From Paracoccus sp. (in: a-proteobacteria) (lineage in GTDB: Bacteria; Pseudomonadota; Alphaproteobacteria; Rhodobacterales; Rhodobacteraceae), in the NCBI RefSeq assembly GCF_030538495.1, contig NZ_JAUNTW010000009.1, positions 80,498 to 144,497 on the forward strand: a DNA stretch of 64,000 nucleotides, read 5' to 3'. Position 1 is the first letter of the stretch; the number at the start of each line of letters is the position of its first letter. Position numbers and translations under genes: made by a program. Below are positions 45,020 through 61,284 of the stretch, piece after piece. The notes beneath the pieces were generated by a model. The model had not been told where the DNA came from. It saw only the letters and a program-made list of their open reading frames with translations, and did not search any database.

Positions 45020-45676
45020 ATGTCTAATCCGCTGCTGCAATTACTGGTTCTGGCCGCGATTGCGATTTTTCTGATCCTGCGGCTGCGCAACGTGCTGGGG
45101 ACGCGCGACGGGTTCGAACCCCCGCGCACCGACGAACAGCCGCGCCCCACCCCCAAATTCGAGGTGATCGAGGGCAGCGCCGAACAGGTCGATCACGACA
45201 TTCTGGACCACGCCCCCGCTGGCAGCGCCAGTGCCGATGCCTTGGCCGCGATGAAACAGGCCGAGCCGTCCTTTGTGCTGCGCGATTTCCTGAACGGGTC
45301 GAAATCGGCCTATGAAATGATCCTGATGGCGTTTGAACGCGGCGATCTGTCGGATGTGCGGCCGTTTTTGGCCGAACCTGTGGCCGATGCGTTCCAATCG
45401 GTGATTGATCAGCGCGTGGCCGCCGGCCAGACCGTGCAGGCGCAGTATCTGGGGACGCGCGAAACCGCGCTGACGGCGGCGGAATTTGATCACGTCACCG
45501 GCATGGCGGAAATTTCCGTGCGGTTTGTGGGTGAACTGATCGCGGCCACGCTGGACGCTGACGGCACCGTGATCGAAGGCGACGCCAAAGCCCCGCGCAA
45601 ACAAAAAGACGTTTGGACCTTTGCCCGTCACATGGGGCAGGATGATCCGAACTGGCAGCTTGTTGCGACGGGCTGA
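45020..45676 (+). CDS. Tim44/TimA-like domain protein
   Basis: Encodes 218 aa from ATG 45020. N-terminal membrane segment NPLLQLLVLAAIAIFLILRL, then VLGTRDGFEPPRTDEQ, a linker, and the Tim44-like domain at about 80-215 (FLNGSKSAYEMILMAFERGD, then ISVRFVGELIAATLDADG). It is the bacterial relative of the mitochondrial import motor anchor Tim44. It is coupled to the following smr gene by a TGATG overlap. Confidence 0.92.
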   Translation: MSNPLLQLLVLAAIAIFLILRLRNVLGTRDGFEPPRTDEQPRPTPKFEVIEGSAEQVDHDILDHAPAGSASADALAAMKQAEPSFVLRDFLNGSKSAYEMILMAFERGDLSDVRPFLAEPVADAFQSVIDQRVAAGQTVQAQYLGTRETALTAAEFDHVTGMAEISVRFVGELIAATLDADGTVIEGDAKAPRKQKDVWTFARHMGQDDPNWQLVATG

Positions 45677-46272
45677 TGCGCCGCCGCCGGGGTCTGACCC
45701 CTGAGGATGCCGAGATTTGGGCGCAGGTCGCCCGCACCGCGCATCCCATGCACCCAAAGCCTCGGGTCGCGTCCGATGCGAAACCCAAACCCGCGCCGGT
45801 CACGATCCGCGCGGGTTTGGCGTCTGATTTCAGCGTCCCCGATTTTCGCGTGGGACAGGCCGCACCCACATCCAAGGGCGGTGTGACCCGCGCCCAAACC
45901 CCGGCGCAGCATCTGGCGGCGGCATCGCTGCGGATGGATCACAAAACCCATCGTAAGATGACGCAGGGGAAAATGCGGCCCGAAGCGCGCATCGACCTGC
46001 ACGGCATGACGCTGGCGCAGGCGTTTCCCGAATTGGTGCAATTCGTGATGTCTTGCCATGCGTCGGGGCTGCGGCTGGTGCTGGTCATCACCGGCAAAGG
46101 CAGCAGCGGCGATCCCGGCCCTCTGCCCACCCGCCCCGGAGCGCTGCGCCACCAGGTGCCGCATTGGCTGCACAGCCCGCCTTTGTCGCTGGTCGTGCAA
46201 CAAGTCACCGCCGCCCATTACCGCCACGGCGGCGAGGGGGCGTATTACGTCTATCTGCGGCGGATTGGGTAG
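45676..46272 (+). CDS. Smr-domain protein
   Basis: Encodes 198 aa. The N-terminal half is basic and low-complexity. The C-terminal Smr domain (about 105-195) has ARIDLHGMTLAQAFPELVQF, then LVLVITGKGSSGDPG and GEGAYYVYLRR, with the LDLHG-like and HGxGxG-like (here TGKG) motifs. Smr domains are DNA/RNA nicking or ribosome-collision endonuclease modules. Its stop is only 10 bp upstream of the first degenerate CRISPR repeat. Confidence 0.9.
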   Translation: MRRRRGLTPEDAEIWAQVARTAHPMHPKPRVASDAKPKPAPVTIRAGLASDFSVPDFRVGQAAPTSKGGVTRAQTPAQHLAAASLRMDHKTHRKMTQGKMRPEARIDLHGMTLAQAFPELVQFVMSCHASGLRLVLVITGKGSSGDPGPLPTRPGALRHQVPHWLHSPPLSLVVQQVTAAHYRHGGEGAYYVYLRRIG

Positions 46273-46282
46273 GGGGGGGCGC

Positions 46283-46614
46283 TTGTTCCGCTGCGACACG
46301 GGGATGAAACGGCTGGCTCGGTCCAGACAGACATATCCCGCCGCTGTTCCCTATGAATCCGGGGATGAACCGATCGACGTGGAGGTGTCGGCCTTTCCGG
46401 TCGACTGTTCCCCGCGAACGTGGGGATAAACCGTGATTGATCTGGCGGATATGCCGCTGACCAGTTTGTTCCCCACGAACGCGGGAATGAACTGCAAATC
46501 CGCGACGTGCCGCTGGTCGATCCCCCTGTTACCCACGAGCGTGAGGGTGAACCGGACAAGGCCCTGATCGAGTCGGGTCGAAATTACTGTTCCCCGGAAC
46601 GCGGGGATGAATCG
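46283..46614 (+). CRISPR. Degenerate type I-E-like CRISPR array, six diverged repeats
   Basis: Six 28-29-nt units at 46283-46311, 46344-46372, 46405-46433, 46466-46494, 46526-46554 and 46587-46614. The consensus starts CTGTTCCCC, has palindromic arms CCCCGC/GCGGGG around GAAC, and ends GGGGATGAACCG, as in type I-E. Spacers are 32, 32, 32, 31 and 32 nt. Every unit differs from the consensus (for example the first has CGCTGCGACAC in place of the loop side, and the last lacks one base). No leader fits in the 10 bp after smr, and no cas gene is in the window. It looks like a decayed array. 46615-46808 beyond it shows nothing recognisable. Confidence 0.85.
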
Positions 46615-46808
46615 AACTGTCCGCGCAGTGTGCCGGGCCTTTGTCATCTGTCGGAAGCGGTTCCGCAACGGACCTAATTTCTATGGCTTCCCGCATCTGC
46701 CGGGCAAAGCGGGCTAACGGATCGCGGCGACGATGCGCGTGCCGATTGTGACGGTGGTTTACGATTTGGCTAACGAAAAGACACGCCGGTGGCGGGCCTG
46801 CGCAATAT

Positions 46809-47000
46809 TCAGGCGGCAAATATCTTAATAAGAACAGCGGCCAAGCCAGCCCCGGCCCCGATCAGCGCGGTAGCAGCCCTCGCACCGACTGCCAGCGGGT
46901 GCCACACCGTTTCTTTCGAAATTTTCGCCGTTTCCGCGATCAGCTTGGCGATTTCGGCGCGCATCTTGTCGTCGGCAAGGCTTTGTTCTTGGGTGGTCAT
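46809..47000 (-). CDS. Small protein with C-terminal membrane segment, unknown
   Basis: Encodes 63 aa. The N-terminal half is a charged helix (QSLADDKMRAEIAKLIAETA), and the C-terminal half is a hydrophobic segment (GARAATALIGAGAGLAAVLI). AAGGGA lies 8 bases before ATG 47000. The upstream palindrome TTTAACG-N5-CGTTAAA (47050-47068) resembles motifs around the neighbouring XRE gene, so that regulator probably controls it. No function is known; it looks like accessory, possibly phage-derived, DNA. Confidence 0.6.
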   Translation of the reverse strand: MTTQEQSLADDKMRAEIAKLIAETAKISKETVWHPLAVGARAATALIGAGAGLAAVLIKIFAA

Positions 47001-47049
47001 GTCTCGGTTCCCTTCGGTTCGGATGGCACCGAGTCGTTATTGCTTCAAA

Positions 47050-47068
47050 TTTAACGAATACCGTTAAA
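47050..47068. promoter_or_regulatory. Candidate operator, TAACG dyad
   Basis: TTTAACG and CGTTAAA are perfect inverted 7-mers around AATAC, 50 bp upstream of the 63-aa gene. Related TAACGGAT units occur at 47317-47325 (upstream of the XRE gene) and, inverted, at 47086-47095 (end of the XRE gene). Confidence 0.6.
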
Positions 47069-47084
47069 AATGTCAATCAAACCG

Positions 47085-47291
47085 CTATCCGTTAGTCTTC
47101 TGCGGCCAGTCATTCGGCCTGTAACCGTCCAGATAGGCCCGAACCAGCCTTTCGACGGCGGCACTGATCGCGGTCGCGCCGCGCTCTAACTCGCTGACGC
47201 GGACGGAATGCCCGAACCCCAACAAAGGGGCGATTTCGTGTTGTTTCAGCCCAAGACTTTTGCGGGCCGCTTTCAGTTCGTCGGCTGTCAT
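47085..47291 (-). CDS. XRE-family helix-turn-helix regulator
   Basis: Encodes 68 aa from ATG 47291 (MTADELKAARKSLGL). The HTH is KQHEIAPLLGFGHSVRVSEL, ending ERGATAISAAVERLVRAYLD. It is a small cytosolic DNA-binding protein. It lies upstream of the 63-aa membrane protein gene, same strand, separated by an 84-bp gap with the TAACG dyad. A toxin-antitoxin pair cannot be shown. Confidence 0.8.
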   Translation of the reverse strand: MTADELKAARKSLGLKQHEIAPLLGFGHSVRVSELERGATAISAAVERLVRAYLDGYRPNDWPQKTNG

Positions 47292-47361
47292 CGTCGCCCC
47301 CCTGTTTGATTTACATCTAACGGATTGCGTCACTTTTTCAAGGGGGCATTATGGCTGACCC

Positions 47362-47856
47362 CTAATCCCGTCGCGGCGACACATCCTGACAGATCGGCAC
47401 GACATAATTCGGGGGCAGGGCGGACGCCGCAATCGCGCGTTCGGCCACCATCACGCTGCGGGTGGTGGAGGCACCCTCTGACGGATGATCGCCAATTTCG
47501 ACCCGGCCCGTCAGCAGGTTCACATCGCACACCGTGACCGAGGCCGACAGCCGGTCGTTCATCGTCTGCGTGAACCCGGCCAGCACATAATCCCCGCCGC
47601 GCGACGCGAATTTGTATTCGTTTACCACCCCCATGCTGCCGCACACGTCGCAGCCCGCATAGACCGTAAACCCGGTATCCGTGCGTTCCACATCGGGAAA
47701 GCCAGTCATATTCGGCAGAACGGAAAACGCCGCGCGGATGGAATAATCTTCGATCACGACGACGCGGTTATCGGCGGGGGTCATCACATTGACGGCGTGG
47801 ACGGGACCGTTCGGCCCGTCCCCCACCACAATCGCCACCAAAGCCGCCGCAATCAT
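47362..47856 (-). CDS. Exported protein of unknown function
   Basis: Encodes 164 aa. Starts MIAAALVAIVVGDG, a weak signal or membrane segment. It contains a CDVCGS motif (GCDVCGSMGV) and a late Cys (VVPICQDVSPRRD). No family is recognised. Its start overlaps the 3' end of the upstream PLDc_N-like gene by 4 bp, so they are probably co-transcribed. Confidence 0.6.
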   Translation of the reverse strand: MIAAALVAIVVGDGPNGPVHAVNVMTPADNRVVVIEDYSIRAAFSVLPNMTGFPDVERTDTGFTVYAGCDVCGSMGVVNEYKFASRGGDYVLAGFTQTMNDRLSASVTVCDVNLLTGRVEIGDHPSEGASTTRSVMVAERAIAASALPPNYVVPICQDVSPRRD

Positions 47857-58893: not shown

Positions 58894-59166
58894 ATGAAAA
58901 CCGTCAGCAAATCCGACATCATCCGCCAGATCGCACAGGCCCACGGCCAGACGCAGGACAATGTCCGCGCCAGTGTCGATGCCCTGATCGACGCCATTCT
59001 GGGCCATGTGCAGGCCGGGGCCAAGGTCAACCTGACCGGGCTGGGGGCATTCAGCCTGCAACACCGCCCCGAACGGATGGGCCGCAACCCATCCACCGGG
59101 GAACCCGTCCAGATCGCGGCCAAGGATGTCCTGAAATTTAAGCCCAGCCAACAGCGCAAAGCCTGA
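58894..59166 (+). CDS. HU-family DNA-binding protein
   Basis: Encodes 90 aa, normal HU length. SKSDIIRQIAQAHGQTQDNV, LTGLGAFSLQHRPER and the DNA-arm motif GRNPSTGEPVQIAAKDVLKF. It may help transposition-complex assembly, as host HU/IHF does for Mu. Encoded within the phage early operon. Confidence 0.95.
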   Translation: MKTVSKSDIIRQIAQAHGQTQDNVRASVDALIDAILGHVQAGAKVNLTGLGAFSLQHRPERMGRNPSTGEPVQIAAKDVLKFKPSQQRKA

Positions 59167-59172
59167 TGCGAA

Positions 59173-59192
59173 ACCGGCCCTGCGGGGCCGGT
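59173..59192. other. GC hairpin after HU gene
   Basis: ACCGGCCC pairs with GGGCCGGT across TGCG. No T tract follows, so it may protect the transcript 3' end or be Rho-related rather than an intrinsic terminator. Confidence 0.5.
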
Positions 59193-59242
59193 CGGTCGGG
59201 CGTGGTGGCCCGGTCCTGATGATGCGGCCAAAGGAGTGAAAA

Positions 59243-60971: not shown

Positions 60972-61284
60972 ATCATTTTCCCCTGTTGGTTGAACGGCAA
61001 CCGTTGCGCGCATTGGGCGATTCGACAAGGGGATTTGACATCGGGGCGACAAATGGGCATTCTAAACACCTCCGGCGCACATCGTCGGATCGGGTTTGGC
61101 GACCTGTTTGTAGTAACCCTGACGAAGGGCGCGCGGCGATTTGCCAGCGCCTTTTCCTATGGTCGGGCGTCGTGGGAGACCGAAAGGTCTGCCGCGTCGG
61201 CTACTCCGCGGTTCGCCAACCTGCGACTGCCCGGCCACCCTTTTGGCGAAGGTGGTTCGGGCTTAACCTGTAAGGGACGTAGCT
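60972..61284 (+). ncRNA. Probable structured untranslated region upstream of the BRO-N gene
   Basis: About 313 bp without a convincing gene. It has a stem AGACC-GAAA-GGTCT with a GNRA loop (61177-61190) and a longer hairpin 61229-61262 (GCCCG/CGGGC, CCACC/GGTGG, loop TTGGCG). The hairpins lie 22 to 95 bp before the BRO-N ATG. An ATG at 61053 opens a frame through it, but codon use and the overlap with the next gene argue against coding. It could be a leader or a phage small RNA. The left part also holds the cargo gene promoter. Confidence 0.5.

What the first reader, a model, noticed from the sequence alone, without database searches (positions are those of the whole stretch)
46283..46614. 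Decayed type I-E-like CRISPR array with conserved spacing but diverged repeats, no cas genes
Six 28-29-nt repeats alternate with 31-32-nt spacers. The ends (CTGTT..., ...ATGAACCG) and the hairpin (CCCCGC-GAAC-GCGGGG) match type I-E, yet every unit carries changes, and the first starts 10 bp after the smr stop, leaving no room for a leader. Even spacing with point changes suggests an old relic, or an array that is no longer selected by Cas6e. No cas gene is in the window.
Basis: partly seen in the sequence, partly recalled or inferred. Interest (0 to 1): 0.8.

Follow-up and report, generated by a model that had tools for sequence, protein, structure and literature searches.

The report
Decayed CRISPR array behind smr gene
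A bacterium of the genus Paracoccus carries, just behind an ordinary gene, a worn-out stretch of CRISPR memory whose entries still resemble phage genes, while a complete CRISPR system with the parent repeat sits elsewhere in the same genome; it is an instructive relic rather than a new kind of system.

Summary
In detail: six type I-E-like repeats (five of 29 nt, one of 28) and five spacers of 31-32 nt at 46283-46614, starting 10 bp after the smr stop. It is a genuine CRISPR relic. Three of five spacers resemble phage genes: S2 a terminase (28/32), S3 a tail fibre (28/32), S4 the Gp36 gene of this genome's own Mu-like prophage (26/31, first 21 nt exact). None of these 124 matched the array at this locus; in two of them smr directly abuts its convergent neighbour, so the array lies in a 1.09-kb insert probably gained in this lineage. 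A second decayed, leaderless array lies on contig C4. Best explanation: a leaderless fragment that takes up no new spacers and decays, mostly by transitions. Use as a guide against the resident prophage is not excluded, but damaged hairpins, an AAA flank and the missing leader speak against it. New member of a known kind.

The parts
45676..46272 (+). smr gene (Smr domain, PF01713), directly upstream
46273..47361 (.). insert between smr and its convergent neighbour, holding the relic array and two small ORFs
   Evidence: stops of smr and the neighbour overlap in G014 (L021) and G019 (L028)
46283..46311 (+). repeat R1, 8 substitutions, weak fold (-5.2 kcal/mol)
46312..46343 (+). spacer S1, no convincing target found
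46344..46372 (+). repeat R2, 5 substitutions (-6.2)
46373..46404 (+). spacer S2, 28/32 to a phage terminase large subunit gene (phrog_38) on G014:C11; AAA in front there, AAG in several viral relatives
46405..46433 (+). repeat R3, 2 substitutions, hairpin kept (-12.4)
46434..46465 (+). spacer S3, 28/32 to a J-like tail fibre gene (phrog_5616) on G014:C38, ATG in front; short match (23 of 24 nt with one flanking repeat end, E = 1) to gp19 of Paracoccus phage Shpa
46466..46494 (+). repeat R4, 4 substitutions, imperfect hairpin (-8.2)
46495..46525 (+). spacer S4 (31 nt), 26/31 with the first 21 nt exact to the Gp36 gene of the resident Mu-like prophage (G000:C23:15604), AAA in front
46526..46554 (+). 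repeat R5, 6 substitutions, imperfect hairpin (-6.6)
46555..46586 (+). spacer S5, only partial, coding-like matches
46587..46614 (+). repeat R6, 28 nt, one base deleted (-11.5)
46809..47000 (-). 63-aa ORF in the insert; its first 35 residues have relatives in 5 other genomes of the genus; weak PHROG match of unknown function
47085..47333 (-). 82-aa helix-turn-helix regulator, phage-type (phrog_14076)
47362..47856 (-). convergent neighbour, relatives of which abut smr in G014 and G019

Best explanation
The segment is a real but decaying fragment of a type I-E CRISPR array. It descends from the same repeat lineage as the genome's live array on contig C5. It came to lie, without a leader, at the junction of smr and its convergent neighbour, within about 1.1 kb of accessory DNA. 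Without a leader it takes up no new spacers (inferred). Its repeats, and probably its spacers, have since drifted, mostly by G:C-to-A:T transitions. Its spacers record older members of phage groups that still circulate: one of them lies on a phage contig that three live spacers match at 31-32 of 32. Shown: repeats, period, shared repeat type, cas genes in trans, phage-like spacers, empty site in two relatives, no leader. Inferred: how it moved, loss of adaptation, and loss of most or all crRNA output.
For: Period of 60-61 nt and I-E repeat anatomy. Live I-E array with 16 exact copies of the parent repeat plus one with a single change, and all eight cas families beside it. 20 of the 124 other genomes of the genus have repeats within 3 mismatches; no copy listed for them is within 1 mismatch (listing truncated), so the repeat looks private to this lineage, and R3, R4 and R6 keep its GAAC loop. 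S2, S3 and S4 match phage genes. Of 16 live spacers, I01, I02 and I03 match the phage contig G014:C11 at 31/32, 32/32 and 32/32, each behind AAG, and S2 lies on the same contig at 28/32. Insert absent from two relatives and array match at this locus only in G000 of 125 genomes. In the five gap-free repeats 18 of 25 substitutions are transitions, 15 of 25 G:C to A:T (my count). A second decayed array on C4, L011:2505-2914.
Against: S1 and S5 have no convincing target. The spacer matches are imperfect and each rests on few sequences: per-genome E-values were 3.7e-4 (S2) and 1.6e-5 (S3) in a draw of 101 genomes and 1.3e-3 (S4, own genome); the Shpa match is weak on its own (E = 0.3 and 1); among 34 viral-contig relatives of the tail fibre gene S3 finds nothing above 21/32, and among 80 terminase relatives S2 reaches at most 25/32. 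At positions where a phage homologue gives a reference, S2 and S3 show 3 unsupported bases of 64 by eye against 27 of 174 in the repeats (Fisher p = 0.027, counts entered by hand). This hints that repeats decayed faster than spacers, which plain neutral decay does not predict; but spacers that can be matched are by selection the better kept ones, so I do not rely on it.
Confidence: 0.85

Rival explanations
1. The relic still works in trans: read-through from smr makes a precursor, Cas6e from C5 cuts the better hairpins (R3, R6, perhaps R4), and Cascade carries S3- or S4-guided RNA, giving weak immunity, priming, or silencing of the resident Mu-like prophage.
For: Full cas set in the genome; R3 and R6 keep strong hairpins; same strand as smr, 10 bp after its stop; S4 matches the resident prophage exactly from its first base over 21 nt, and 0 of 2000 shuffled S4 sequences reach 26 matches on that contig.
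Against: R4 and R5, which would cut out S4, fold poorly (-8.2 and -6.6 against -14.3); the S4 site is preceded by AAA, while the three live spacers with a found target have AAG; the one promoter-like site found in 45500-47100 is on the minus strand; no leader. No RNA data.
Confidence: 0.08
2. The array came in on a phage or plasmid as a small cargo array and decayed after integration.
For: It lies in a 1.09-kb insert with a phage-type regulator and an accessory small ORF.
Against: The repeats are of the host's own type. No record in the phage and plasmid collections looks like a source: of 27 phage and 29 plasmid records listed, the long matches are at about 69-73% identity, which I read as other I-E arrays, and the rest are short words (records not opened, apart from phage Shpa).
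Confidence: 0.12
3. A CreTA-like antitoxin RNA or other repeat-like regulator rather than an array.
For: Degenerate repeats, and one spacer with a partial match inside the genome.
Against: Six regular units, phage-like spacers, no cas locus nearby. A toxin RNA gene was not searched for. CreTA features are recalled and come from no call.
Confidence: 0.02
4. An unrelated tandem repeat that looks like CRISPR by chance.
For: The repeats are diverged.
Against: Parent repeat in an array beside cas genes of the same genome, spacers resembling phage genes, no chain of at least 3 units in 10 shuffles.
Confidence: 0.005

Closest known systems
Type I-E CRISPR-Cas array
   Same: 29-nt repeat with GC hairpin and ATGAACCG end, 32-nt spacers, phage-like spacers; I-E cas genes in the genome
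   Different: No leader, every repeat changed, cas genes on another contig
Orphan or leaderless CRISPR arrays away from cas loci (passages seen of PMC12814883)
   Same: Short, distant from the cas locus, no leader
   Different: A matching complete cas locus is present in the same genome, so it is an orphan only in position
Self-targeting spacers classed as non-effective for lack of a PAM, mutated adjacent repeats or missing cas genes (Stern et al. 2010, known to me here only through a passage of PMC6990116)
   Same: S4 nearly matches the resident prophage; the repeats beside it are mutated; the flank is AAA
   Different: The match is 26/31, not full, and the prophage may be a relative of the original target

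Membership tests
Type I-E CRISPR array | 29-nt repeats with I-E hairpin and conserved ends | tested here: met
   2-8 changes per gap-free unit; hairpin strong in R3 and R6, weak in the other four
Type I-E CRISPR array | spacers of about 32 nt, period about 61 | tested here: met
Type I-E CRISPR array | spacers from mobile elements with an AAG or ATG flank | tested here: inconclusive
   3 of 5 spacers match phage genes imperfectly; flanks ATG (S3), AAA or AAG depending on the phage (S2), AAA (S4):
Type I-E CRISPR array | leader upstream of the first repeat | tested here: not met
   smr ends 10 bp upstream, and the stretch differs from the one before the live array
Type I-E CRISPR array | I-E cas genes in the genome | tested here: met
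   on contig C5, not adjacent
Type I-E CRISPR array | processed into crRNA | not testable with these tools
   no RNA data
Decayed orphan array (relic) | repeats derived from a recognisable intact parent repeat | tested here: met
Decayed orphan array (relic) | no spacer uptake | not testable with these tools
   needs several strains of the species
CreTA | toxin RNA gene beside the repeat-like RNA, near cas genes (recalled) | not tested
   the cas locus is on another contig; a toxin RNA was not searched for

The most novel reading that the evidence does not exclude
The relic is kept as a guide: the live I-E system in trans loads S4 RNA, whose perfect 21-nt seed side and mismatched far end let Cascade sit on the Gp36 gene of the resident Mu-like prophage without destroying the chromosome, damping its late genes; repeat decay would then be partly selected, to weaken autoimmunity.
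Probability: 0.04. Interest if true: 0.75.

Novelty: new member of a known kind. Interest (0 to 1): 0.35.

Why it matters
It is a small natural experiment: one genome with a live array and two decayed arrays of the same parent repeat, and with live and dead spacers against one phage contig. Repeat decay, spacer decay and phage escape could be compared in one lineage, and one could ask whether near-self spacers speed up the loss of an array.

Tried and rejected
Self-targets: only S4 gave a clear one. The other matches of the array in its own genome at E <= 10 (one search lists 50 places, itself included) are the live and C4 arrays or words at E 0.058 or worse. The best of those words, on C15 and overlapping S3, was fetched and shows no ungapped match of 23 or more for any spacer tested. 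The G061 match of S4 (26/31) lies in a gene that looks chromosomal to me by eye (no family search), and I discounted it. Ten genomes of the family matched the S4 part; 8 were fetched and read. They reach 19-24 of 31; two lie in homologous proteins, one looks integrase-like by eye, and none was put to a family search; I took them as short coding words. S5 matches in G041 and are likewise words of 20-28 nt. Exact 20-21-nt pieces in viral contigs gave 0 hits for S1, S2, S3 and S5 and 2 for S4; over the whole spacer those two reach 23 and 24 of 31 and I did not count them. PMC6568314: 0 whole-word occurrences of AAA in the main text, so I cannot say how AAA performs. C4-array stretch and live-array stretch against phages: no spacer target that I trust. 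Spacer against repeat decay: suggestive at best, see the Against line. Literature: search listings only; passages of three papers.

Sampling: one search drew 101 genomes of the genus (own included); one search covered 125 (own included); one search covered 394 of a larger family. The chain scan covered L012-L121 as far as each locus reaches beyond smr (for a few loci a few hundred bases or less); only L012, the window's own locus, gave a chain.

Full report
What is there. Between 46283 and 46614 six units resembling the type I-E repeat follow each other at 60-61 nt. Five are 29 nt long and one 28; the spacers are 32, 32, 32, 31 and 32 nt. The array starts 10 bp after the stop of smr and reads in the same direction. 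A chain scan finds this one chain in the 64-kb window and none in 10 mononucleotide shuffles.

The parent. The window lies in G000:C19 of a 2.67-Mb genome in 27 contigs. The first 37 named smr relatives listed (L042-L078) are all labelled Paracoccus, so I take the genus as Paracoccus, by inference. Contig C5 holds a clean array: 16 exact copies of CTGTTCCCCGCGAACGCGGGGATGAACCG plus one with a single change. Beside it are Cas3, Cse1, Cse2, Cas7, Cas5, Cas6e, Cas1 and Cas2. Each matches an NCBIfam model above its curated cut-off; Cas3 does so with the two domain models, while the full-length model PRK09694 stays below its cut-off. So cas genes are not near the array but are in the genome.

A second relic. 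Contig C4 has another decayed array, L011:2505-2914, with one unit at 1 mismatch, one at 3, and others more decayed. It begins about 20 bp after the stop of an open frame at L011:2069-2485 (no Pfam match) and in the same direction. Both relics lack a leader and start right behind an open frame. Two cases are too few to call this a rule.

Origin. One search finds repeats within 3 mismatches in 21 of 125 genomes, G000 included. For the 20 others no listed copy is within 1 mismatch, and the copies printed have other loops (such as ACAC, ATGC, ACGC; the listing is truncated). Relic units R3, R4 and R6 and the best C4 unit keep the GAAC loop, so they descend from the repeat of this lineage. In one search, 26 of 125 genomes show some match to window 46283-47080, but only G000 matches the array at this locus; the other matches are to other arrays, to the small ORF, or short. 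None of the smr loci L013-L121 has a chain of at least 3 units within the stretch held. In G014 (L021) and G019 (L028) the smr stop overlaps the stop of the convergent neighbour, so the window carries 1.09 kb extra, 46273-47361. That neighbour was recognised in only these 2 of 109 smr loci, and in many others a different gene follows, so the junction is variable in the genus. The insert also holds a phage-type helix-turn-helix regulator and a 63-aa ORF with relatives in five other genomes, one of them also beside a regulator of this kind. A clean deletion in both relatives is the alternative; a gain in this lineage is simpler.

Spacers. S2 matches a terminase large subunit gene (phrog_38) at 28/32 on G014:C11. 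In seven of the viral relatives printed the three bases before that site are AAG; in G014 they are AAA. S3 matches a J-like tail fibre gene (phrog_5616) at 28/32 on G014:C38 with ATG in front; the best phage record is Paracoccus phage Shpa gp19, 21 of 22 nt at E = 0.3, or 23 of 24 at E = 1 with two bases of repeat. None of 34 viral-contig relatives of that gene matches S3 above 21/32. S4 matches 26 of 31, exactly over its first 21, at G000:C23:15604 (E = 1.3e-3 for the exact part). The place is a Gp36 gene (PF07030) of a Mu-like prophage with Mu-type transposase and gpT head protein; 0 of 2000 shuffled copies of S4 reach 26 on that contig, the highest being 23. S1 and S5 have no convincing target. 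As a yardstick, 3 of 16 live spacers (I01-I03, next to the leader) match G014:C11 at 31/32, 32/32 and 32/32, all behind AAG. The live array thus holds near-exact memory, and the relic blurred memory, of related phages.

Decay. In the five gap-free units 18 of 25 substitutions are transitions and 15 of 25 go from G:C to A:T (my count), as expected of unselected DNA (general knowledge). Folding energies fall from -14.3 kcal/mol in the parent to -5.2, -6.2, -12.4, -8.2, -6.6 and -11.5 in R1 to R6. The 5' 17 nt carry 20 changes in 102 positions and the 3' 12 nt 7 in 72 (p = 0.09, counts entered by hand), so no part is clearly protected. Repeats may have decayed more than spacers (27/174 against 3/64 by eye, p = 0.027), but spacers that can be matched are the better kept ones, so this is weak.

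How it most likely works. Most likely it does not. Without a leader adaptation stops (recalled from type I systems). With mutated repeats, processing by the Cas6e of C5 would be poor for most units (inferred). The near-self spacer S4 would be tolerated because the repeats around it are damaged and the flank is AAA. [quoted passage not shown] Passages of PMC6568314 name AAG and ATG as consensus PAMs of E. coli I-E. A remaining guide function against the resident prophage cannot be excluded without RNA data.

Known or new. Orphan and leaderless arrays are known (passages of PMC12814883). This is a new member of that kind, with the useful twist that parent, relics and phage targets can be seen together.

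Noticed in passing
window 59166-59233 (+): Type II hammerhead ribozyme, 68.2 bits (Rfam RF02276).
   Followed up: no
window 61155-61242 (+): C4 antisense RNA, 61.8 bits (Rfam RF01695); may point to phage-derived DNA near the window's right end.
   Followed up: no
L010 2488-3492 (-), G000:C5: The live array holds a block of three spacers twice, in the same order: a duplication inside the array.
   Followed up: partly
L011 2505-2914 (+), G000:C4: Second decayed leaderless I-E array behind an open frame that follows a glutaredoxin gene.
   Followed up: partly
L128 1575-1971 (+), G099:C1: A seven-unit I-E array in another genome of the genus in which five of seven repeats differ from the consensus.
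   Followed up: partly
G000:C23 (L275, L276): A 26-kb contig of the same genome with Mu-like transposase, terminase, portal and head genes.
   Followed up: partly
window 46272-46279: A run of eight G that begins with the last base of the smr stop and ends just before the first repeat; the C4 relic also starts behind a G-rich stretch.
   Followed up: no
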